Shown piece after piece: positions 3,011 through 52,382 of a DNA stretch of 64,000 bases. The stretch comes from an uncultured Clostridia bacterium (GTDB lineage: Bacteria; Bacillota; Clostridia; Oscillospirales; Ruminococcaceae). The position numbers were made by a program, and so were the translations under genes. The stretch covers positions 1 through 64,000 of the forward strand of contig CAMNXF010000008.1 of assembly GCA_946567425.1 (NCBI GenBank). Reading direction: 5' to 3'. Positions within the stretch are counted from its first letter, which is position 1, and each line of letters begins with the position of its first letter. The notes under the pieces are model-generated. The model made no database searches. It saw only the letters and a program-made list of their open reading frames with translations, and was not told the DNA's origin.

Positions 3011-3724
3011 TTATGCCGCAGCCATGACTTCCTCCGCCTTTTTTTCGGTGATAACTCCGCAGTCCTCCATGCTGCCCAGAACCAGCTTCAGGCGCTGTTC
3101 GGCAAGCTCGGGCGATTCGTCGGGAGAATAAGCCGAGGGCGCGTTCGGAAGCCCCGCGAGCATTGCGCATTCGTACTCCGAAAGCTCTAAGGGCGCTTTC
3201 CCGAAATACCCTTTTGCCGCATCAGTAATTCCGTAGTAGCCGCTGCCGAAGTAGATCGTGTTCACATACAGCTCGAAGATCTCGTCCTTTGAGAGTGCCT
3301 TTTCCAGATCGAACGCTGCGTACACCTCGGCGAACTTCCGTTCGATCTGTTTTTCCTGCGTGAACCAAAGGTTCTTGGCAAGCTGCTGCGTTATCGTCGA
3401 GCCGCCTTGTTCAAATGAGAGCGTTTTGATGTCATACAGCAGCGCCCGCGCTATCGACTTGAGGTTGATGCCGTTATGCGTACGGAACTTCCTATCCTCG
3501 ACGGATATTACGGCGTTTATGTAGAACTGCGGCAGCTCTGAGACCCTCGCGAAGCCGTCTGCAGCTTGCAGCTCCGCAACCGCCATATCAAGCGGCTTTG
3601 CGGCTTTGGCGTTGTTCCACATAACCGCGCCCTTTATCGCGAAAAATCCGACAACGGCAATGCAAAGCGTCGCAATTCCCCCGATAACGCTAAAAATCAC
3701 TTTTATAATTTTCTTCTTTTTCAT
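3011..3724 (-). CDS. mtgA: Monofunctional peptidoglycan glycosyltransferase (GT51)
   Basis: This 237-residue enzyme polymerises lipid II into glycan strands at the outer face of the membrane. A single membrane anchor spans residues 7-30. GT51 motifs appear in order: EDRKFRTHNG with catalytic Glu76, GGSTITQQLAKNL, the RKFAEVYAAF-ELYVNTIYFG segment, GYYGITDAAKGYFGK and LAGLPNAPSAYSP. There is no transpeptidase domain, so it is a monofunctional enzyme and not a class A PBP. The ATG at 3724 follows an AAGGGGG site. It overlaps the upstream small membrane protein gene and seems to be the last gene of the Bce-like transporter operon. Confidence 0.93.
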   Translation of the reverse strand: MKKKKIIKVIFSVIGGIATLCIAVVGFFAIKGAVMWNNAKAAKPLDMAVAELQAADGFARVSELPQFYINAVISVEDRKFRTHNGINLKSIARALLYDIKTLSFEQGGSTITQQLAKNLWFTQEKQIERKFAEVYAAFDLEKALSKDEIFELYVNTIYFGSGYYGITDAAKGYFGKAPLELSEYECAMLAGLPNAPSAYSPDESPELAEQRLKLVLGSMEDCGVITEKKAEEVMAAA

Positions 3725-3872
3725 GGTTCCCCCTTGCAATCAGATCTGCCGCCTTGCCGCCCATTCCCGTAACTATCCATACTATTACCAGCACGATAAT
3801 TATCGGAACAGCGGCAAGCGCAATCATTATGCCGACTGTTTTGTGTGTGGCTTTTTCAAGTTTTTGTTTCAA
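3690..3872 (-). CDS. Small single-pass membrane protein
   Basis: This 60-residue protein has a basic N-terminus, a long hydrophobic helix at about residues 14-36 and a charged C-terminus. It starts with TTG, supported by a GGGGAGG ribosome site nine to ten bases upstream. It lies 40 bases after the permease gene and overlaps the start of the glycosyltransferase gene by 35 bases, so it seems translationally linked to both. I do not recognise a family. Small membrane proteins in such operons sometimes act as accessory or regulatory peptides, but that is only inference. Confidence 0.6.
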   Translation of the reverse strand: MKQKLEKATHKTVGIMIALAAVPIIIVLVIVWIVTGMGGKAADLIARGNHEKEENYKSDF

Positions 3873-3912
3873 CGTATATACCTCCCCGAAATTTCAAAAA
3901 ATTATGTTTAGC

Positions 3913-6021
3913 CTACTTACCGTTTCCGCTGACTATGCCCAGATAGCTCCGCGAGGTCGCCTTGTAGAACAGCACGTACATCACCGCGAATACCGCGTAG
4001 CACAGCAGTGTGACAAGCGCAAGCAGCGTAACATTGTACATATCGAACAGATTGAGCATTTTTGCAATCATCGGGAACGCGAACATCATGTGCACTCCCG
4101 CAGCGGCAAGCGGCAGAAAGAACACTTTCAGAACCTGCGAGTTTATAGCAGATTTTATCTCGCGCTGCGTCATTCCGACCTTGCGGAGTATCTCGAACCG
4201 CGCCGCGTCCTCAAAGCCCTCGCTTATCTGCTTGTAGTACATTATCAGCGCCGCCGACAGCGCGAATACACTTCCCAGCAGAATGCCGAGGAACAGCAGA
4301 CCGCCGTACAGCCCGTAATAATTCTCCACCAGCGTCGCCTTTGTATCGATATTGAGGCTGATGTTCGCCTCCTCCATAAAGTCCTCACCGAACACGCCCC
4401 ACGGATTTGAAAGCTGGTCGTATACCCTGTTGACCTCGTTTATATCCTCCGAAACGTCAAAGCCGTAGGTCACATAAATGTCGCTTATAAACACGCCGGT
4501 GTAGCCGATGTACTCGTCCTCGGGTATGTCGTGCTCCTTTTTATATTCTTTTTCCATTTCCTCGTTTATGGGAGTGAGCACGTCGTACTGCTCCTTGTAC
4601 ATCTTCGCAAGCACGTCCTTGTCGCGGACGTAGATAAACGCAAAGTCCTCGTTGGTGCGGTACACGTTTTTATCCTTAACGCTCTCAGGCACGGTATCGA
4701 GCGTGATAATATTAAACTCCATACCGCCGTATTTCAGCGTCGGATTTGTGGTTATACGCTTTTCGTTCGGCTCGTATATCGCGGCGTCGTTTTCACCGAG
4801 CTGCAAATTCAGCGCCTTGATGTTCTCGTCCGCGTCGTCGAGCGGGATTATCCTGCCCTCTGCGGGTATGCTGAATTCGCTGTCGGGCAGAGACGTGTCT
4901 ATTCCCATAACATATTTAAAGGTGTCCTCATCAAAAGAAACATAACGCGCAACGGAACCGTTTTTCAGCTCATAGCCCAGCGCCGTGACGTGTTCGTTTG
5001 TTTTCTCGATGAACTTATCCGAAACATAGCGCTCGTCGTCCCGAAAGACCATGGTAATATCGTTCGGATATTGTGTTCCGACCATATCGGGAATAGCCGC
5101 GTACAGCGACACAGTACTCGAGAGCGTTACCAGAACCATAGTTGAGAGTATGCATATAGAGGCAAGCCCTGCGCCGTTTCTGCGCATACGGAACGCCATC
5201 TGCGATAATGAAACGAAATTTTTCGTCTTATAATACCAGTCCTTTTTCTTTTGCAAAATTCTGCAAAGAACGACGCTGCCCACGATAAACAGCAGATAGG
5301 TCGCGAGAATTACCAGAATGACCGCCAGCCAGAACAGCGGAATAGCCGCGACGGGGTCTTTGACCGTGACTGCGATAAAGTACGCCGTTCCGAGCAGCAG
5401 TATACCGAATACCGTCATGGGGATATTCGTGCGCGGAGGGCGCTCTCCCGTATTCTCGGAGCGGAGCAGCTCGACGGGTCTCGAGAAGAACAGCTGCCGC
5501 AGAGAGTTCAGCAGAATAAACACAAAGATCACCGCGAACAGTATCAGCGACGCTATGACCGAAATAATGTCGACCGTGAACGTATACGTAATGCCGCCGC
5601 GCAGCATTTTCACCGCCAGCATTTCTGCCAGCTTTGAAAACAGTATTCCCATGCCGAGCCCGAGCACCTCGGATATGAGATAGATAAGAACGGTTTCCTG
5701 TACGAGAATTTTCGCTATCTGCCCCTTGCCAAGTCCGAGGATATTGTACAGTCCGAATTCCTTTTTCCGTCTTTTGATGAGGAACGAATTGGTGTAGAAC
5801 AGAAATATCGCGGAAAATATCCCCATAACGATACTTCCCATACCAAGCACGATCGACATCATTCCGCCGCCCACCATACCCTGAAGCATACTGCTGTCGC
5901 TGAGGAAAGTGACAATGTAAAATACCATGACCATAAGCGATGAGGTCAGGATATACGGGATATACGAACGCCCGTTTTTGCGTATTCCCGTAGCCGCGAG
6001 CTTTGAATACAGACCCGCCAT
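3913..6021 (-). CDS. BceB-type ABC transporter permease (FtsX/MacB-like)
   Basis: This 702-residue permease shows the BceB plan of ten predicted membrane helices: one near residue 22-40, three in the first 150 residues forming an FtsX domain, more around 205-310, a large extracellular region at roughly 310-540, and a second FtsX domain at the C-terminus. In Firmicutes such permeases remove bacitracin or other cell-wall-active peptides from lipid targets and pass the signal to a partner histidine kinase. It overlaps the ATPase gene by one base (ATG within the stop region) and so is translationally coupled. The particular peptide recognised cannot be read from sequence. Confidence 0.9.
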   Translation of the reverse strand: MAGLYSKLAATGIRKNGRSYIPYILTSSLMVMVFYIVTFLSDSSMLQGMVGGGMMSIVLGMGSIVMGIFSAIFLFYTNSFLIKRRKKEFGLYNILGLGKGQIAKILVQETVLIYLISEVLGLGMGILFSKLAEMLAVKMLRGGITYTFTVDIISVIASLILFAVIFVFILLNSLRQLFFSRPVELLRSENTGERPPRTNIPMTVFGILLLGTAYFIAVTVKDPVAAIPLFWLAVILVILATYLLFIVGSVVLCRILQKKKDWYYKTKNFVSLSQMAFRMRRNGAGLASICILSTMVLVTLSSTVSLYAAIPDMVGTQYPNDITMVFRDDERYVSDKFIEKTNEHVTALGYELKNGSVARYVSFDEDTFKYVMGIDTSLPDSEFSIPAEGRIIPLDDADENIKALNLQLGENDAAIYEPNEKRITTNPTLKYGGMEFNIITLDTVPESVKDKNVYRTNEDFAFIYVRDKDVLAKMYKEQYDVLTPINEEMEKEYKKEHDIPEDEYIGYTGVFISDIYVTYGFDVSEDINEVNRVYDQLSNPWGVFGEDFMEEANISLNIDTKATLVENYYGLYGGLLFLGILLGSVFALSAALIMYYKQISEGFEDAARFEILRKVGMTQREIKSAINSQVLKVFFLPLAAAGVHMMFAFPMIAKMLNLFDMYNVTLLALVTLLCYAVFAVMYVLFYKATSRSYLGIVSGNGK

Positions 6022-6782
6022 TACGCCTCACCTCCGCTTGCCATAACGGTGAGCGCGTCGGATATTTTGCGGTACATCTGATCGGCGGTGCCGTTCCCTC
6101 TGTATATCTGGTGGAACACCATTCCGTCGCGGATAAACAGCACTCTCCGAGCGTGAGAAGCCGCCTTTACCGAGTGCGTTACCATAAGTATAGTCTGCCC
6201 GCGCGAATTTATGCCGCCGAACAGTCTCAGCAGCTCGTCGCTTGCTTTCGAGTCGAGCGCGCCGGTAGGCTCGTCGGCGAGCAGTATCTTCGGGTCGGTG
6301 ATGACAGCACGCGCGACCGCCGTGCGCTGTTTCTGTCCGCCCGATATCTCATACGGAAATTTCGTAAGCAGCTCCGCGATACCTAGAGATTTTGCGACGG
6401 GCAGCAGCTTGCCCTCCATATCGCGGTACTTCATTCCGCGCAGAACAAGCGGCAGCAGTATGTTGTCCTTCAGCGAGAACGTATCCAGCAGATTAAAATC
6501 CTGGAACACAAATCCCAGATTATCACGGCGAAAGGACGACATTTCACTCTCCTTTATCTTCGTGAGGTCGCGCCCGTCGAGGATAACGCTTCCCGCGGTC
6601 GGTCGGTCGAGTGCGGCAAGAATATTCAGCAACGTGGTCTTACCCGAGCCGCTTTCGCCCATTATCGCGATGAACTCTCCCTCCTCTGCCGAGAACGAAA
6701 CGTTTTTCAGAGCCTCGACCTTATTTCCGCCAAACCTTTGAACGTATGTTTTTTTAATGTTGTTTACTTCAAGCAGTGCCAT
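6021..6782 (-). CDS. BceA-type ABC transporter ATP-binding protein
   Basis: This 253-residue ATPase powers the permease encoded next. Walker A is GESGSGKT at residues 42-49, the signature ISGGQKQR is at about 146-153, and Walker B ILLADEPTGALD follows at about 166-177. The arrangement and the VFQDFNLLDTFS Q-loop segment match the MacB/LolD/BceA group. An AAGGAGACTTTTAT ribosome site precedes the ATG. It is the first gene of a probable four-gene operon (ATPase, permease, small membrane protein, transglycosylase) controlled from the operator at 6932-6958. Confidence 0.93.
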   Translation of the reverse strand: MALLEVNNIKKTYVQRFGGNKVEALKNVSFSAEEGEFIAIMGESGSGKTTLLNILAALDRPTAGSVILDGRDLTKIKESEMSSFRRDNLGFVFQDFNLLDTFSLKDNILLPLVLRGMKYRDMEGKLLPVAKSLGIAELLTKFPYEISGGQKQRTAVARAVITDPKILLADEPTGALDSKASDELLRLFGGINSRGQTILMVTHSVKAASHARRVLFIRDGMVFHQIYRGNGTADQMYRKISDALTVMASGGEA

Positions 6783-6893
6783 ATAAAAGTCTCCTTAATT
6801 GAGATAAGAGCAAAGCGGAGGGATTTTTGGGAACGTACTTTTTGTGTATGCGGCTTCGGTATTTATGAACCCTCCGCTTTGTTCTCTGTATTT

Positions 6894-6958
6894 ATTATAA
6901 CATACCCGAAAAAATTTCGCTATTTATTTGTCTTACATTTATCTTACATTTTTGTAAG
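6894..6958 (-). promoter_or_regulatory. BceR-type operator and promoter of the ABC operon
   Basis: An inverted repeat CTTACA-TTTT-TGTAAG at 6943-6958 fits the TNACA-N4-TGTAA consensus described for BceR-like response regulators. A further half-site CTTACA at 6932-6937 lies 11 bases away in direct repeat. On the minus strand a TATAAT -10 box follows at 6894-6899 with no good -35, as expected for an activator-dependent promoter. The leader then contains a 12-13 bp stem (CAAAGCGGAGGG with its complement) with a loop of about 45 bases before the ATPase start. Confidence 0.75.
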
Positions 6959-6972
6959 ATAAATGTTGCAAA

Positions 6973-7000
6973 ATTCCCCGAAACGTAAGTCCCGGGGAAT
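6973..7000 (-). terminator. Terminator after the sensor kinase
   Basis: ATTCCCCG at 6973-6980 pairs with CGGGGAAT at 6993-7000. Read on the minus strand the hairpin is followed by a short TTTTG run, directly after the kinase stop codon and before the operator of the ABC operon. Confidence 0.75.
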
Positions 7001-7009
7001 AAGGTCTTG

Positions 7010-7999
7010 TCATTCTCTTGTATCTATCTCTTTTTCACGCAGGTCTATAAGCACCTCCGTGCCGTCCTTGCCGGAACGTATTTCAATACCGTGTCCGAGA
7101 GCTTTGCATATGCGCTTGCACAGATACAGCCCTATACCCGTAGCCTTTTTGTCGGCGCGTCCGTTGTTGCCCGTATAGCCGCGCTCAAACACTCTCGGCA
7201 AGTCCTCGGGGGCTATCCCGATACCCGTGTCGCGTATCGAGAGCGTTTTCTCGGGTCTCAGAGAAATTTCCACGCTTCCGCTTTTTGTGTACTTGAGGGC
7301 GTTCGAGATAAGCTGCTCGACCACGAACAGCAGCCACTTTTCGTCTGTAAGCACATCGATCCCGAGCGGCTCGTAAACCAGCGTTATTTTTTTGCGGATA
7401 AACTGCCCCGAAAATTTGCGCACCGCCTGTCTGATTATCTTGTCGAGCGAATATCCGCGTATCACGAAATCGCTCGATTCGCTGTCGAGCCGAACGTAGC
7501 AGAGCGCCATTTCGACGTATTGCTCTATCCTCTGCAAATTCTCCGAAAGCTCGCGGCTCTCCTCGGTATCCGTCTCCTGAAGCGCCAAGCTCATTGCCGA
7601 GATAGGCGTTTTTATCTGGTGCGCCCACATCGTAAAATACATGACCGTGTCGTCGTAGCGCTTGTCGGCGGCGGATTCCAGTACCGTTTTTTCGGTGAAC
7701 AGCGTTTCCAGAAGTTGCTGATACCGCTGCTCGACCTCGTTCTCGCACTCGGGCAGATGTTCGAGCGTGAGAAGTATCTCGTACTGTAACTCGCGCAGCA
7801 GCTTGTGCTTGGCGTAATACCGCCGAAAATCTCCCGCGGCGGCGGCAGCCGTTATCACCGCGCAGATAGTTCCCGCGTAAACGTATGCCGCAAGCGGCAC
7901 TCCGTACAGCGCCATAAACAGCACGAAAACCGCCGCGACCAACAGGATCACGGCGATTATCCTTCGTCTGTAGTACAAAAAGTTAAATAAAAAACTCAT
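7010..7999 (-). CDS. BceS-like intramembrane-sensing histidine kinase
   Basis: This 329-residue kinase has two membrane helices in the first 55 residues with almost no extracellular loop, typical of kinases that sense through a BceAB transporter. The H-box has His127 in MWAHQIKTPISAMSL. N-, D- and G-box motifs follow (ISNALKY, IRDTGIGI, GIGLYLCKRIC). It presumably phosphorylates a BceR-like regulator. Unusually, no response-regulator gene is next to it: its start overlaps the stop of the CCA-adding enzyme gene by four bases (ATGA), while the cognate transporter lies downstream behind its own promoter. Confidence 0.9.
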   Translation of the reverse strand: MSFLFNFLYYRRRIIAVILLVAAVFVLFMALYGVPLAAYVYAGTICAVITAAAAAGDFRRYYAKHKLLRELQYEILLTLEHLPECENEVEQRYQQLLETLFTEKTVLESAADKRYDDTVMYFTMWAHQIKTPISAMSLALQETDTEESRELSENLQRIEQYVEMALCYVRLDSESSDFVIRGYSLDKIIRQAVRKFSGQFIRKKITLVYEPLGIDVLTDEKWLLFVVEQLISNALKYTKSGSVEISLRPEKTLSIRDTGIGIAPEDLPRVFERGYTGNNGRADKKATGIGLYLCKRICKALGHGIEIRSGKDGTEVLIDLREKEIDTRE

Positions 8000-9489
8000 T
8001 TCTTCCTTTTGAATACCGGCTCGGCGCGTCTGCCTTTTTCCCGCTTGGCGCGCTCCTGTTCCGCTTTTTCCTGTGCGGCGCGCAGACGCTCCGCCTCTAT
8101 CTGCTCCAACTTTGACTTACTTTTTTCGGCGATATCGAGCAGCATAAGGCGGTTGTTGAACGACGGTTTATCCAGAACGATATCGAACAGCGCGTTTATA
8201 AGCTGCTCCGCCTCTGCGTCGCTGCTTACCAGCCGCCTTTCGATAAGCTCGCGCTTGGTTATGGCTAGCTGACTTATATCGCAGCATTCATCGGTTTCCA
8301 CGATTTCGTTAAGCGCCGCAAGGCTCGCGCGGAGCCTCTGCGTCTGCTCCGGCTCGTTGTCCGACTTGCGGGCGCGGCTGTCGGCTATCTCGCATTGCAG
8401 AAGATCGCGCAGATCGGGCGCGCCCAGCTCGCGGATAAGTCCCTTCAGATCTTTCCTGTCCTCGGGTATGGGCACGTCGTGGTGGTAGATAAGCCAACTT
8501 ATTTCGTCTATCATATTTTTCGGGAACTCCAGCCGCCGCATTATACCCTCGGCGAGCAGCCGTCCTCGCTCGGCGTGACCTTTGAAGTGCCCGTTTCCTC
8601 TGCCGTCAACGAACATACAATCGGGCTTTCCCAGATCGTGAAACAGCATGGCGAAACGTATCTCAGGCTCGGGCAGCGCGTAGCCCACCGCCTTGCATAT
8701 ATGCGTCCACACGTCAAATTCGTGATGACGCGTCTGCTGTTCAAAACCGATACAAGGCTCGATCTCGGGCAGCACATATTTTAATATGTCCGAGTTTTGC
8801 TCCAGCGCCCTTGCCGCGAATTTTCCCATTACAATGCGCTGCAATTCCTCGCGTATCGAACCCGCGTCCGCGTATTCGAAGCACGCGACATTCGCTTTCA
8901 TGCAGTTTCTCGTCTGCTCGTCAATCTCGTACTCGTCCTCCGAGCAATAGCGGATAGCCTGTAAAAGCCGCGACGGCTGTATCGTGAAGCTCTTCGACAT
9001 ATCGTAGATAGTCTCCGCGGTCGGCTTTCCGCCCACCTTTACATTGACCGTCACGTTCTCGCCGATAGCCACGACCTGTTTTATCTCGCCCGTAAGCGCG
9101 CCGCGCCCGTCATACGGGTCGATAAGCCCCGCCTTGGGAGAGTACGCCATGGCGTTCATTGTGAAACCGCGCCGCGCCAGATCAGTTTCGAGATCCTCCG
9201 CGTACATGACCCTGTTGCCAACCACCTCGCGGCGGTACGGCGATATCTGTATCACCATTCCCACGACAGTAACAAGTATCTCCCCGCGTGACATTCCCTC
9301 GTCGGAGATACGGTATTCGCGGAACGTGAACATTATGTCGTTTATCTCCGCGTTGGTCACAATATCAAAATCCTGCGGCGAGTTGCCCAGAATAAGCTCG
9401 CGCACGCAAGCCCCGACAACATAAGCCTCAAATCCCGCGCTCTCAAGGCGCTCCAGAGCCTCGATAACAGGCGCCGGCAAAATGATCAT
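7996..9489 (-). CDS. cca: CCA tRNA nucleotidyltransferase with HD domain
   Basis: This 497-residue enzyme adds or repairs the 3' CCA of tRNAs. The class II nucleotidyltransferase head shows a VVGACVRELILG turn followed by QDFDIVT with the metal-binding aspartates. An RNA-binding helical region with RLLQAIRY follows, and an HD-type domain has LFHDLGKPD near residue 280. The last 35 residues are a Lys/Arg/Glu-rich tail. The ATG at 9489 is chosen over an upstream ATG at 9534 because GGTGGGG lies just upstream and the longer form has no ribosome site. It is translationally coupled to the kinase gene downstream. Confidence 0.92.
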   Translation of the reverse strand: MIILPAPVIEALERLESAGFEAYVVGACVRELILGNSPQDFDIVTNAEINDIMFTFREYRISDEGMSRGEILVTVVGMVIQISPYRREVVGNRVMYAEDLETDLARRGFTMNAMAYSPKAGLIDPYDGRGALTGEIKQVVAIGENVTVNVKVGGKPTAETIYDMSKSFTIQPSRLLQAIRYCSEDEYEIDEQTRNCMKANVACFEYADAGSIREELQRIVMGKFAARALEQNSDILKYVLPEIEPCIGFEQQTRHHEFDVWTHICKAVGYALPEPEIRFAMLFHDLGKPDCMFVDGRGNGHFKGHAERGRLLAEGIMRRLEFPKNMIDEISWLIYHHDVPIPEDRKDLKGLIRELGAPDLRDLLQCEIADSRARKSDNEPEQTQRLRASLAALNEIVETDECCDISQLAITKRELIERRLVSSDAEAEQLINALFDIVLDKPSFNNRLMLLDIAEKSKSKLEQIEAERLRAAQEKAEQERAKREKGRRAEPVFKRKK

Positions 9490-48447: not shown

Positions 48448-49761
48448 ATGCAGATACCTAAACGAATAGCCGCGGGGCTTATCAACGCGCTTAAAGGCGG
48501 AGTTGTGCCGCGCGTGGGGCTTGGTTATATCGCGGTCGGGCGCACGAATGAGATAAACGCACTGCTGCACGACGTTGCCATTGCCGAGGACGGCGGCGCG
48601 TTCTTCCGCTTTATCGTCGGGAAATTCGGCAGCGGCAAGAGCTTCCTTATCCAAACTATGCGCCAGCACGTTATGGACAGGGGGTTCGCCTCGGCGGACG
48701 CGGACCTGTCGCCCGAACGGCGGCTTATGGGCACAAAGGGGCAAGGGTTGGCGACCTACCGTGAGCTTATGCGTTCGCTGTCCGTCAAGGCTAAACCCGA
48801 CGGCGGCGCGCTGCCGCTTATCCTCGAAAAGTGGATAAACGGCGTGCGCTCCGAGGTGGTCGCGGACGGAATGCCGCCGGACAACACGTTCTTCGATACC
48901 GAGGTCGAGAAACGCGTTTACGCGAAAATAAACGGACTGGAGGATATGGTTCACGGGTTCGATTTCGCGGCGGTGATAATCACCTACTACAAGGCGTTCC
49001 GCGACGGCGACGACGAGCGGCAGAGCAAAGCCGTCCGCTGGCTGCGCGGGGAGTATTCCACCAAGACCGAGGCAAAACAGGACTTGGGCGTGAACGTTAT
49101 CATCTCGGACGAAAACTGGTACGATTATATCAAGCTTATGACGGCGTTTCTTGTGAACGCAGGCTATAAGGGCTTGGTCATTATGATAGACGAGCTTGTC
49201 AACATAATGAAGATCTCCAACTCGGTAACGCGCCAGAACAACTACGAGAAAATACTGATGATGTACAACGACGTAATGCAGGGCAAGGCATCGCACCTCG
49301 GGATAATCATGGGCGGCACTCCGCAGTGCGTCGAGGATACGCGGCGCGGCGTGTTCAGCTACGAGGCGCTGCGTTCGCGGCTGGAGCGCGGACGGTTCGC
49401 GACGGACGAAACGCACGATATGTTAGCGCCGATAATCCGCTTGAATACGCTCACCTACGAGGAGCTTACCGTGCTTACCGAGAAACTTTCGGAGATACAC
49501 GCGCTGCTGTACGGCTATGAGCCGAAGATAACTCTTGAGGACAGAATTTACTTTGTTAAAGCGGAGTTTGAGCGCGTGGGAGCGCAGACGAACGTTACGC
49601 CGCGCGAGATGATCCGTGACTTTATCGAGCTGCTGAATATCGCTTATCAGCACCCCGAAAAAACGCTCCCCGAGCTTATGGGCGAGGACGAGTTCAAGTT
49701 TGCGGAGGGCGAGGGTGACAATTCCGAGGGTGCGGACGGTTTTGAGGATTTTGATTTGTAA
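48448..49761 (+). CDS. BrxD-like P-loop ATPase (DUF2791, BREX ATP-binding family)
   Basis: This 437-residue protein has Walker A GKFGSGKS at residues 58-65, preceded by an FIRF-type strand, and Walker B VIMIDEL with Asp248-Glu249. The sequence around YRELMRSL, VVRWL-like repeats and the C-terminal TPREMIRDFIELLNI resembles the BrxD/DUF2791 family found in BREX phage-defence loci. ATG at 48448 is chosen; a TTG at 48436 would abut the ribosome site. The acidic tail (last 30 residues) is notable. It is followed by a small basic protein and an Lhr-like helicase, two genes of an apparent cassette, without other BREX genes. Confidence 0.82.
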   Translation: MQIPKRIAAGLINALKGGVVPRVGLGYIAVGRTNEINALLHDVAIAEDGGAFFRFIVGKFGSGKSFLIQTMRQHVMDRGFASADADLSPERRLMGTKGQGLATYRELMRSLSVKAKPDGGALPLILEKWINGVRSEVVADGMPPDNTFFDTEVEKRVYAKINGLEDMVHGFDFAAVIITYYKAFRDGDDERQSKAVRWLRGEYSTKTEAKQDLGVNVIISDENWYDYIKLMTAFLVNAGYKGLVIMIDELVNIMKISNSVTRQNNYEKILMMYNDVMQGKASHLGIIMGGTPQCVEDTRRGVFSYEALRSRLERGRFATDETHDMLAPIIRLNTLTYEELTVLTEKLSEIHALLYGYEPKITLEDRIYFVKAEFERVGAQTNVTPREMIRDFIELLNIAYQHPEKTLPELMGEDEFKFAEGEGDNSEGADGFEDFDL

Positions 49762-49813
49762 GGAATTTTGTTATGGCAATTGTGAAACTCTAAATTTTAA
49801 AAATCGGCAGCGA

Positions 49814-49842
49814 TAGCAAAATATAAGTCAAGCGCATATAAT
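49814..49842 (+). promoter_or_regulatory. Possible internal promoter before the small basic protein
   Basis: TATAAT at 49837-49842 with a weak TAGCAA at 49814-49819 gives a 17-base spacer. A small CGGGA-GCAT-TCCCG hairpin follows at 49849-49862. Confidence 0.45.
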
Positions 49843-49888
49843 ACGGCACGGGAGCATTCCCGACTTTAAAGCAAAGGAGCTGAATTGT

Positions 49889-50032
49889 ATGTTTGGCATT
49901 TTCGGCAGACGACCGAACCGCAGACCCGACCGCAGACCGCCTGTACAGCCCGGCAGACCCGGACACAGACCGCCGCCTCACAGCAGACCCGGGCGCAGAC
50001 CGCCGCCTCCGCCATGCGATTGCGGACGTTAA
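49889..50032 (+). CDS. Small Arg/Pro-rich basic protein, 47 residues
   Basis: An ATG at 49889 is preceded by a strong AAAGGAG ribosome site at good spacing and opens a 47-codon frame to TAA at 50030-50032. After MFGIFGRR the protein is built from repeated RRP/RPG/RPPP units: about a third of residues are Pro and a quarter Arg. It ends CDCGR, with two cysteines. It has no recognised family. Such composition would be disordered and able to bind nucleic acid or acidic partners, perhaps the acidic tail of the upstream ATPase, but this is inference. It lies between the ATPase (127 bases) and helicase (67 bases) genes. Confidence 0.65.
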   Translation: MFGIFGRRPNRRPDRRPPVQPGRPGHRPPPHSRPGRRPPPPPCDCGR

Positions 50033-50099
50033 TTAAATGATCGCGGCTGCTCCGCCGAAACGCAGGGCAGCCGCTTATAATATTAAACGAGGTAAAAAA

Positions 50100-52349
50100 A
50101 TGAGCAAAAACGATATTTTCTACAGACTTGCGCCGTTTATTCAGGACTATATCTACCGTAACAAGTGGGAGGAGCTGCGCGATATTCAGGTCGCGGCTGC
50201 GGAGATCATCTTCAATAGCGAGGATAATCTGCTGCTGACCTCGGGCACAGCGAGCGGAAAGACCGAAGCTGCGTTCCTCCCCGTGATAACGCAGCTCTGG
50301 GAGAACCCCTCGGGCAGCGTGGGAGCGCTGTACGTCTCGCCGCTAAAGGCGCTGATAAACGACCAGTTCGAGCGGCTGGAGGAGCTGCTCGAGGAAGCGG
50401 ACATGCCTGTCACGAAATGGCACGGCGACGCTTCGCCCTCCGCGAAAAAGAAGCTCGTTAAAAATCCGCGCGGCATTATGCAGACCACTCCCGAGAGCCT
50501 TGAGAGCCTGCTTATGCGCAACAGCGCGAACGCCTATCGTTTGTTCTCAGACCTGCGTTTCGTCATCATCGACGAGGTTCATTATTTTATGGATAACGAC
50601 CGCGGCTTGCAGCTGCTGTCGGTGTTGGAGCGTTTGCAGCGGATCATCGGTTTCGTGCCGCGCCGTATCGGGCTTTCGGCTACTCTTGGCGACTGTGCTA
50701 ACGCCGAAAAGTGGCTCTGTATGGGAACTAACGCGCCGTGTATAACACCCAAGGTCCGCGAGAAAAACCGCAAGGTACGTCTGTCGGTGAGGTTCTTCCC
50801 CGTCGCCGAAAAAATACCGCACTCCGACAGCAAGACGCTGCTCGAAAAATATTACGAATACCTCTATGAAAGCACGCACGGCAAGCGCTGCATAATGTTC
50901 TCAAACAGCAAGGGCGAGGTTGAGGAGAATATCGCGCACATGAAAAGGCTCTCCGAGAAAAACCGCGGGAACGACTGCTATCTCGTTCATCACGCGAATA
51001 TTTCCCCCGCGCTGCGAGAGTTCGCCGAAAAGCGCATGAAATCGGGCGAGCTGCCTGTCTGCACGGGCGCGACTGTCACGCTGGAGCTGGGCATCGATCT
51101 CGGACATCTGGAGCGAATAGTGCAGACAGGCTGTCCGCTTACGGTCTCGGGACTTGTTCAGCGGCTCGGACGGACGGGGCGGCGCGGCGGCGATATAGGC
51201 GAAATGCGTTTCGCGTTCCGCTGGGATATGAGCCTGCCGCCGAATACGTTCTACAAGGAAATAAACTGGGATCTCGTTATGTGCTCGGCTATGATCTTGC
51301 TCTACACACGCGAAAAGTGGGTCGAGCCTATGTATCTGCCCAAGCTGCCGTACAGTCTGCTCTATCATCAGACTATGTCGATACTCGCGGCGAGCGGCTC
51401 GGTGCAGCCAAAGGAGCTTGCGCGGCAAGTGCTCACGCTGTCGGTGTTCTCTCACGTTTCCAAGGATGACTACTTGCTGATGCTCCGTAATATGCTTGAG
51501 AACGGTCAGCTTGAACGCGGCGAAGACGGCGGTTTGCTTATTGGCGAAAAGGGCGAGGCAGCCGTGAACAGCTACGATTTTCTGGCGGTGTTTTCCGTTC
51601 CCGTGGAGTATACCGTGCGGAGCAGTGCGGGCGGCGGTGTTTCGGCGGAGATTATCGGCACGGTGCAGAACCCGTTTCCGCCGAAGTCACAGTTCGCGCT
51701 GGCGGGTCAGGCGTGGGAGGTCACGGAACTTGACAAAAAGCAGACGATGATTTACGTTAAAAAGATCGAGGGCATTTCCGCGAACGTGTGGACGGACATC
51801 GGCAACGAGTACGTACACACAAGGGTGATGAAGATGATGCTGGAGGTGCTGCGCAGCGACGAGCAGTACGCGTTCCTTGACGAAAGCGCGCGCAAACGGT
51901 TAGACGATATTCGCCGTCTGTGCCGAAACGCGACGATGAGCGGCGAGGTGACAAGCGGACGCGAGCTTACGGGCGGAACGATCTTGGACGGGCGGGGAGA
52001 ACGAATTGTTGTTCCGCTCTCCGAAACGGTGTATGCGGTTTTCCCGTTTCTGGGAACGCGCGGAGTTATGGCGCTGCTGTACGCCTTGCGTGAGCGCGGA
52101 TTTCAGGCTAACCTATGGTTACAGCGCTACATTCCCGTGTGTATCGAAGTGACGACCGACCGCGGCAAGGAGACCCTTACCGCCGCGCTGAACAATATCC
52201 GCGAAAACGGCGCGGACAAGTATACGTTTCACATTCCCGAAAACTGTGAGATCACGGGCAAGTTCAACGACTATATCCCGCGTCAATTGCTTACAAAGCA
52301 GTATGTGGAGGATTACCTTGACACGGACGATCTGCGGAATATGGAATAA
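50100..52349 (+). CDS. Lhr-like superfamily II DEAD/DEAH helicase (BrxHI/BrxHII type)
   Basis: This 749-residue helicase has motif I TSGTASGKT at 47-55, TTPESLE at 129-135, motif II DEVH at 158-161, motif III SAT at 193-195 and motif VI QRLGRTGRRG at 354-363. DEVH is the Lhr form. A C-terminal half of about 370 residues resembles the winged-helix and later domains of Lhr-like proteins. In type 2 BREX an Lhr-like helicase (BrxHI) accompanies BrxD. ATG at 50100 is chosen, as GAGG stands upstream; the frame can be extended to 50037 without a ribosome site. A GC-rich hairpin at about 50043-50073 lies in the leader. Confidence 0.9.
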   Translation: MSKNDIFYRLAPFIQDYIYRNKWEELRDIQVAAAEIIFNSEDNLLLTSGTASGKTEAAFLPVITQLWENPSGSVGALYVSPLKALINDQFERLEELLEEADMPVTKWHGDASPSAKKKLVKNPRGIMQTTPESLESLLMRNSANAYRLFSDLRFVIIDEVHYFMDNDRGLQLLSVLERLQRIIGFVPRRIGLSATLGDCANAEKWLCMGTNAPCITPKVREKNRKVRLSVRFFPVAEKIPHSDSKTLLEKYYEYLYESTHGKRCIMFSNSKGEVEENIAHMKRLSEKNRGNDCYLVHHANISPALREFAEKRMKSGELPVCTGATVTLELGIDLGHLERIVQTGCPLTVSGLVQRLGRTGRRGGDIGEMRFAFRWDMSLPPNTFYKEINWDLVMCSAMILLYTREKWVEPMYLPKLPYSLLYHQTMSILAASGSVQPKELARQVLTLSVFSHVSKDDYLLMLRNMLENGQLERGEDGGLLIGEKGEAAVNSYDFLAVFSVPVEYTVRSSAGGGVSAEIIGTVQNPFPPKSQFALAGQAWEVTELDKKQTMIYVKKIEGISANVWTDIGNEYVHTRVMKMMLEVLRSDEQYAFLDESARKRLDDIRRLCRNATMSGEVTSGRELTGGTILDGRGERIVVPLSETVYAVFPFLGTRGVMALLYALRERGFQANLWLQRYIPVCIEVTTDRGKETLTAALNNIRENGADKYTFHIPENCEITGKFNDYIPRQLLTKQYVEDYLDTDDLRNME

Positions 52350-52354
52350 AATGA

Positions 52355-52382
52355 AAAACACGTTCGCTCTGAACGTGTTTTT
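52355..52382. terminator. Bidirectional terminator between helicase and HD-GYP genes
   Basis: AAAACACGTTC pairs with GAACGTGTTTT around a five-base loop; T-runs occur on both strands. Both convergent genes end within six bases. Confidence 0.9.

What the first reader, a model, noticed from the sequence alone, without database searches (positions are those of the whole stretch)
48448..52349. BrxD-like ATPase, small basic protein and Lhr-like helicase as a free-standing cassette
Type 2 BREX phage-defence loci pair a BrxD ATPase with an Lhr-like helicase (BrxHI) beside PglX, PglZ and PglW/Y. Here the ATPase and helicase stand together with no methyltransferase, phosphatase or kinase gene in the window, on either side of a 47-residue Arg/Pro-rich protein. 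The three genes are on one strand and end at a strong terminator. This could be a minimal defence or DNA-processing module, a relic of BREX, or a housekeeping pair common in Clostridia (for example with a TerB-type partner elsewhere).
Basis: partly seen in the sequence, partly recalled or inferred. Interest (0 to 1): 0.75.

Follow-up and report, generated by a model that had tools for sequence, protein, structure and literature searches.

The report
Scattered core-genome Shango defence genes
Two genes that looked like a stripped-down phage-defence cassette are two thirds of a known three-gene defence system, Shango, whose third gene sits elsewhere in the genome beside a suspected RNA-cutting gene, and a whole genus of gut bacteria keeps this scattered set as part of its standard genome.

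Summary
In detail: ATPase (48448-49761), 47-aa ORF (49889-50032) and helicase (50100-52349) on one strand before a terminator-like hairpin. The BREX reading fails: the ATPase is SngB (588 bits; BrxD 172) and the helicase SngC (725; BrxHI 382) of Shango. The missing subunit, SngA (TerB_N/TerB_C), is on another contig of the same genome. Among 43 genomes of this Oscillospiraceae genus, SngB is found in 37, SngC in 39, SngA in 43. SngA never shares a contig with SngB (0 of 37) or SngC (0 of 39). Outside the genus SngA adjoins SngB in 76 of 78 genomes checked. In the genus SngA sits in a core-gene run behind an Abi_2/AbiD HEPN gene in 40 of 41 testable genomes; none of 50 Shango loci fetched from other genera has its homologue. 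The genes are vertically inherited under purifying selection; unlinked SngA and SngC co-vary beyond controls. Best reading: a dispersed Shango fixed in a core genome. That the HEPN protein is its effector is plausible, unproven.

The parts
48448..49761 (+). sngB: BrxC/BrxD-superfamily ATPase of the Shango kind, 437 aa
   Evidence: PADLOC SngB 588 bits against BrxD 172; PF10923 543.6 bits; Walker A GxxGSGKS and Walker B VxMIDELVN with G62, G65-S69 and D252-E253 kept in 36 of 36 genus proteins
49889..50032 (+). 47-aa Arg/Pro-rich ORF with a good ribosome-binding site; not a constant part of the system
   Evidence: similar ORF before SngC in 3 of 36 genus genomes (G000, G300, G309); a whole-genome search of the genus found only G000 and G300; no family match
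50100..52349 (+). sngC: SF2 (DEAD/Lhr-like) helicase of the Shango kind, 749 aa
   Evidence: PADLOC SngC 725 bits against BrxHI 382; DEAD and Helicase_C; helicase motifs nearly invariant in 32-34 genus proteins
52354..52382 (.). terminator-like hairpin, 13 pairs, shared with the convergent HD-domain gene

Best explanation
The pair is the SngB-SngC half of a Shango defence system that has been taken apart and fixed in the core genome of this genus. SngA, the TerB_N/TerB_C subunit, is made from a distant, syntenic site directly behind an Abi_2/AbiD-family HEPN gene. Proposed mechanism (inferred, not shown): SngB and SngC act together on invading or abnormal DNA, SngB as an ATP-driven loader or switch and SngC as a translocating helicase; SngA joins them in trans as the fast-evolving recognition or relay subunit; the HEPN protein made with SngA is the most likely toxic output (RNA cleavage, abortive infection). 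Shown here: family identity, dispersal, co-retention, vertical inheritance, purifying selection, co-variation of unlinked SngA and SngC. Not shown: anti-phage activity, complex formation, any role of Abi_2.
For: Profile scores. Co-retention in the genus: SngB 37, SngC 39, SngA 43 of 43 genomes, all three in 34. Never on one contig with SngA, whereas SngA adjoins SngB in 76 of 78 other genomes checked. One clade in SngB and SngC trees. dN/dS medians 0.044 and 0.051 for SngB and SngC against 0.03-0.07 for Der, GpsA, PlsY. SngA-SngC partial distance correlation 0.65 given Der; unlinked controls -0.07 to 0.37. Abi_2 in 43 of 43 genomes, beside SngA in 40 of 41 testable, absent from 50 Shango loci of other genera. 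Shango itself is anti-phage in Pseudomonas (PMC10250203, passages).
Against: No experiment in this genus. Near-universal, vertical retention and strong purifying selection also fit a housekeeping role. SngA-SngB partial correlation (0.35) is no higher than the control SngC-PlsY (0.37), and SngB-SngC (0.57) may owe part to linkage in 24 of 34 genomes. SngA-Abi (0.44) does not exceed the linked control SngA-GpsA (0.42). G334 keeps Abi_2 with gpsA while SngA is about 23 kb away. Two genomes over 90% complete lack SngB (G303, G312) and one lacks SngC (G322), so the set is not strictly obligate, unless assembly gaps explain it.
Confidence: 0.6

Rival explanations
1. Domesticated housekeeping module: former Shango proteins now serve chromosome maintenance, for example processing of stalled forks or DNA ends, and Abi_2 is only a core neighbour of SngA.
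For: Near-universal and vertically inherited in the genus, low dN/dS of SngB and SngC; no defence genes beside the pair in the window; no Abi-specific co-variation.
Against: SngA evolves fast (mean identity 0.47, dN/dS 0.17), which fits recognition of a changing target better than housekeeping; the related operons outside the genus are patchy (32 of about 292 family genomes), as defence systems are.
Confidence: 0.27
2. Remnant of a Shango locus in decay: the dispersed genes persist by drift.
For: The operon is broken up, and 9 of 43 genomes lack a detectable SngB or SngC; SngA of G297 is broken in frame.
Against: Open frames in the listed SngB and SngC matches, catalytic motifs kept, dN/dS about 0.05, SngA in 43 of 43 genomes.
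Confidence: 0.05
3. Minimal or relic type 2 BREX module, as first proposed.
For: PF10923 and BrxHI profile matches.
Against: Shango profiles win by 416 and 344 bits; BrxD equivalog cut-off missed; no PglZ over cut-off in the genome; related loci are Shango operons.
Confidence: 0.02

Closest known systems
Shango (SngA-SngB-SngC)
   Same: All three protein families are present in the genome; single copies; catalytic motifs of SngB and SngC kept.
   Different: Genes dispersed over two or three sites instead of one operon; core-genome and vertical instead of patchy; SngA has a genus-specific N-terminal stretch of about 75 residues and an Abi_2 gene as constant neighbour.
BREX type 2 BrxD and BrxHI
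   Same: Same ATPase superfamily (PF10923) and a related helicase; SngC, BrxHI, DruE and DpdJ were reported as a potentially distinct SF2 clade (PMC12278908, passage).
   Different: Scores fall far below the Shango profiles and below the BrxD equivalog cut-off; no BREX enzymes found beside them.
AbiD/AbiF (Abi_2) HEPN systems
   Same: The SngA-linked gene is Abi_2 (169 bits) and PADLOC AbiD (307 bits) with an RN[YFSA]CAH motif in 37 of 37 proteins. AbiF of C. difficile is a toxin held by an RNA (PMC12373285, abstract and one section).
   Different: No Rfam match, abiF RNA included, in the nine loci tested; the constant neighbour is SngA.

Membership tests
Shango | SngB-type ATPase | tested here: met
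   588 bits, best PADLOC match
Shango | SngC-type helicase | tested here: met
   725 bits, best PADLOC match
Shango | TerB-domain subunit SngA in the genome | tested here: met
   TerB_N 71.8 and TerB_C 27.7 bits, PADLOC SngA 160 bits, on contig C4
Shango | three genes in one locus | tested here: not met
   SngA is on another contig in the window's genome and shares a contig with SngB in 0 of 37 and with SngC in 0 of 39 genus genomes. So: Shango proteins, but not a Shango locus of the described form
Shango | anti-phage activity | not testable with these tools
   known for Pseudomonas Shango (PMC10250203, passages)
BREX type 2 | BrxD by curated equivalog cut-off | tested here: not met
   173.2 of 350 bits
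BREX type 2 | PglZ phosphatase in the genome | tested here: not met
   one match below cut-off, 22.3 of 25 bits
BREX type 2 | PglX and PglW | not tested
   not searched genome-wide; absent from the 10 flanking proteins scanned
AbiF-type RNA-antitoxin system (the SngA neighbour) | Abi_2 HEPN protein with RxxxxH motif | tested here: met
   PF07751 169.3 bits; motif in 37 of 37 aligned proteins
AbiF-type RNA-antitoxin system (the SngA neighbour) | abiF RNA (RF03085) beside the gene | tested here: not met
   no Rfam match at E up to 1 in L060 5000-12000, none at gathering scores in eight more loci

The most novel reading that the evidence does not exclude
A whole genus has turned a mobile three-gene defence system into a genome-distributed core immune pathway: SngB and SngC sense foreign or damaged DNA from one or two sites, and SngA, made elsewhere, relays the signal to a dedicated HEPN RNase (Abi_2) encoded with it. 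Shango would then be a sensor that triggers abortive infection, with a protein in the place of the usual RNA antitoxin.
Probability: 0.3. Interest if true: 0.78.

Novelty: new variant of a known kind. Interest (0 to 1): 0.6.

Why it matters
I found no account of how Shango works in the papers seen. Tools that call a defence system from clustered genes would be expected to miss a dispersed one (inference; no caller was run). Because the subunits are unlinked here, co-variation of SngA with SngC points to interaction and not to linkage, which makes this genus a natural dissection of the system. The constant Abi_2-SngA pairing names a candidate effector that a plaque assay in a laboratory strain could confirm or exclude.

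Tried and rejected
BREX membership: rejected on profile scores and on the absence of PglZ over cut-off.

An apparent Abi_2-SngA fusion ORF in G307 was rejected: the frame runs across a run of N, so it is an assembly artefact. That row stayed in the SngA sets (X skipped in 46, 60 and 90, but counted as mismatch in the mean identity); it was left out of alignment A1 and the structure.

RNA antitoxin beside Abi_2: no Rfam match. Specific SngA-Abi co-variation: not above the linked control. The 47-aa protein as a system component: rejected, 3 of 36. SngA as a recognisable enzyme fold: AlphaFold model with mean pLDDT 81.4, pTM 0.56; no PDB match at E up to 0.001; profile search of PDB sequences gave two weak hits, E 0.044 and 0.13.

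Paper searches for a split or core-genome Shango or for Shango with an Abi gene. I saw listings with titles and abstract openings, capped (25 of 97, 6 of 6, 12 of 12, 40 of 187, 15 of 99, 10 of 44, 3 of 3), and passages of PMC10250203, PMC12278908, PMC10952713 and PMC13356809. None of what I saw describes it; subscription journals are mostly not held. Millman et al. 2022 (Shango) and Anantharaman et al. 2012 (TerB neighbourhoods with helicase and ATPase) are recalled, not read.
Full report
Observation. On the plus strand the window holds an ATPase ORF at 48448-49761, a 47-aa ORF at 49889-50032 and a helicase ORF at 50100-52349, then a terminator-like hairpin at 52354-52382 shared with a convergent HD-domain gene. 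The finding's coordinates and description are correct. Two ABC exporter genes end 132 nt before the ATPase; beyond the hairpin are an HD-domain protein, a nucleotidyltransferase, an acetyltransferase and a valyl-tRNA synthetase (the last named from its sequence by recall). Ten flanking proteins gave only generic ABC-ATPase and HD cross-matches to defence models.

Identity. The ATPase is in the BrxC_BrxD superfamily (543.6 bits) but misses the curated BrxD equivalog cut-off (173 of 350); it scores 588 bits with PADLOC SngB and 172 with BrxD. The helicase scores 725 with SngC and 382 and 240 with two BrxHI models. Both are Shango proteins. PglZ has no match over cut-off in the genome.

The missing subunit. 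A TerB_C search of the window's own assembly gave one protein, on contig C4, while the window is on C8. It has TerB_N, TerB_C and a PADLOC SngA match of 160 bits. The genome thus encodes all three Shango proteins, apart.

Distribution in the genus. Of 43 genomes searched, SngB is found in 37 (25 of 27 of good quality), SngC in 39 (26 of 27), TerB_C in 42 (27 of 27). The 43rd SngA, in G313, was found next to Abi_2 on a 4.6-kb contig with a profile from my own alignment. All three are present in 34 of 43. SngB is missing in G302, G303, G312, G313, G321; SngC in G308, G311, G322; both in G318. Some of these assemblies are incomplete, but G303, G312 and G322 are over 90% complete. SngA shares a contig with SngB in 0 of 37 and with SngC in 0 of 39 genomes; the assemblies are fragmented, so true distances are unknown. 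SngB and SngC are in tandem within 3 kb in 24 of the 34 genomes with both and apart in 10, of which 8 have at least 3 kb of contig downstream of SngB. Named records with close relatives are uncultured Clostridia, Oscillospiraceae or Ruminococcaceae metagenome genomes, with one Candidatus Caccomorpha record at 60% identity (35 loci).

Outside the genus. In 297 family genomes SngB is found in 37, five listed as the same genus. In the other 32, SngA lies beside SngB in 30. In G198 SngB is at a contig end; in G019 SngA is on another contig and SngB has other neighbours. In 394 order genomes SngB is found in 87. I tested 46 of the 82 outside the family: SngA is within 1.4 kb of SngB in 46 of 46. 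Together 76 of 78. Twenty of the order loci were read: SngC is beside in 14 of 20. So the linked SngA-SngB arrangement is the rule, the genus is the exception, and G019 shows that a split has arisen at least once more, there without an Abi_2 relative.

The SngA site. In the genus SngA commonly ends a run der - small gene - plsY - gpsA - Abi_2 - SngA: gpsA is among the three genes upstream in 30 of 40 SngA loci. Abi_2 (PF07751 169 bits; PADLOC AbiD 307 bits) directly precedes SngA in 40 of 41 testable genomes: 36 clustered pairs, G297 whose SngA frame is broken, G307 with a run of N and G323, and G313. G315 and G321 have SngA at a contig end. G334 keeps plsY-gpsA-Abi_2, but SngA is about 23 kb away. 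The 36 measured gaps run from -34 to 615 nt, 31 of them under 60 nt, all same-strand; in G304, the longest, a 143-aa ORF call lies between. Genes downstream of SngA vary: the commonest family is first in 11 of 40. One strong Abi_2 copy exists in 43 of 43 genomes; four have a second, weaker one. In the other family genomes, homologues of this Abi_2 are found in 18, at most 51% identical; none of those 20 loci (flanks up to 1.5 kb) has SngA, Der, GpsA or PlsY beside it, whereas all five genus loci searched the same way have both. No homologue was found in the 50 Shango loci fetched from other genera, some of them on short contigs (30 loci; 20 loci).

Evolution. The genus is one clade, SH-aLRT 100, in quick LG+G4 trees of SngB (100 rows, 36 genus) and SngC (73 rows, 33 genus). 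The SngC tree warns that G460, a long branch, joins the genus stem, so the sister group is unsure. Distances follow core genes. Median dN/dS: SngA 0.17 (14 pairs), SngB 0.044 (14), SngC 0.051 (12), Abi 0.067 (9), Der 0.032 (10), GpsA 0.029 (10), PlsY 0.068 (8); the pairs were chosen by me among close relatives. Mean identity: SngB 0.79, SngC 0.77, Abi 0.71, SngA 0.47. With Der distance held constant: SngA-SngC 0.65, SngB-SngC 0.57, SngA-SngB 0.35. Controls: SngB-GpsA -0.07, SngB-PlsY 0.02, SngC-GpsA 0.26, SngC-PlsY 0.37; linked pairs GpsA-PlsY 0.62, SngA-GpsA 0.42, SngA-PlsY 0.29, SngA-Abi 0.44. Only SngA-SngC is both unlinked and clearly above the unlinked controls. SngB-SngC is high but often linked. 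SngA-SngB is not above them. Abi shows no excess over its linked neighbours. Each pair used the 20 to 28 genomes with both genes and Der in my clusters.

SngA itself. Twenty-two columns are invariant in 33 genus and 13 operonic SngA proteins. The first 75 residues are well filled in the genus (0.87-0.99) and poorly in operonic SngA (0.25-0.44). The AlphaFold model is confident for 383 of 643 residues (pLDDT 90 or more), mostly helical, pTM 0.56, with no PDB match at E up to 0.001.

The 47-aa ORF. A similar ORF with like start, end and ribosome-binding site precedes SngC in G000, G300 and G309, so it is probably a gene, but in only 3 of 36 genus genomes examined. A genus-wide search at E up to 0.001 found G000 and G300 only. 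Close relatives G300, G323 and G324 have an acetyltransferase-like gene between SngB and SngC (the name is recalled, not from a profile).

Mechanism. Shown by others: Shango lowers plating of many phages 10- to 100-fold in Pseudomonas (PMC10250203, passages); AbiF, an Abi_2 protein, is a toxin restrained by an RNA (PMC12373285, abstract and one section); HEPN domains of AbiD and AbiF are predicted RNases (PMC3710099, passages). Inferred here: SngB and SngC are the ATP-driven DNA-acting part, SngA the variable recognition or relay part, Abi_2 the output. The last step is the weakest.

Verdict. Not BREX. A dispersed, vertically inherited Shango, kept across a genus, with a HEPN gene as SngA's constant companion: a new variant of a known kind. 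Seven searches of the open-access library showed no paper describing it (listings capped).

Noticed in passing
L074 (G019) and G019 contig C6: A second, separate case of SngB-SngC without SngA beside them: SngA is on another contig, and peptidase genes stand upstream of SngB.
   Followed up: partly
L281 (G586) 3548-8090: Two SngC genes in tandem behind SngB.
   Followed up: no
L264, L266, L273, L274, L279, L280 (families f21, f16, f6 of the order): SngA-SngB pairs with no SngC relative found in the stretch read: 6 of 20 order loci.
   Followed up: no
Order-wide list (families f21, f17, f16, f7, f10): SngB recurs in many genera of a few other families, mostly with SngA beside it, so core-genome Shango may not be limited to this genus; totals per family were not shown.
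   Followed up: partly
L111, L113, L115, L084, between SngB and SngC or before SngC: An acetyltransferase-like gene of about 150 aa in three near relatives of the window and in G321, absent from the window's cassette.
   Followed up: no
G403 contig C58: A full-length SngB match with two in-frame TAG codons: decayed gene or altered reading of TAG in that lineage.
   Followed up: no
G314, G315, G316, G322: A second, weaker Abi_2 gene away from SngA in four genus genomes.
   Followed up: no
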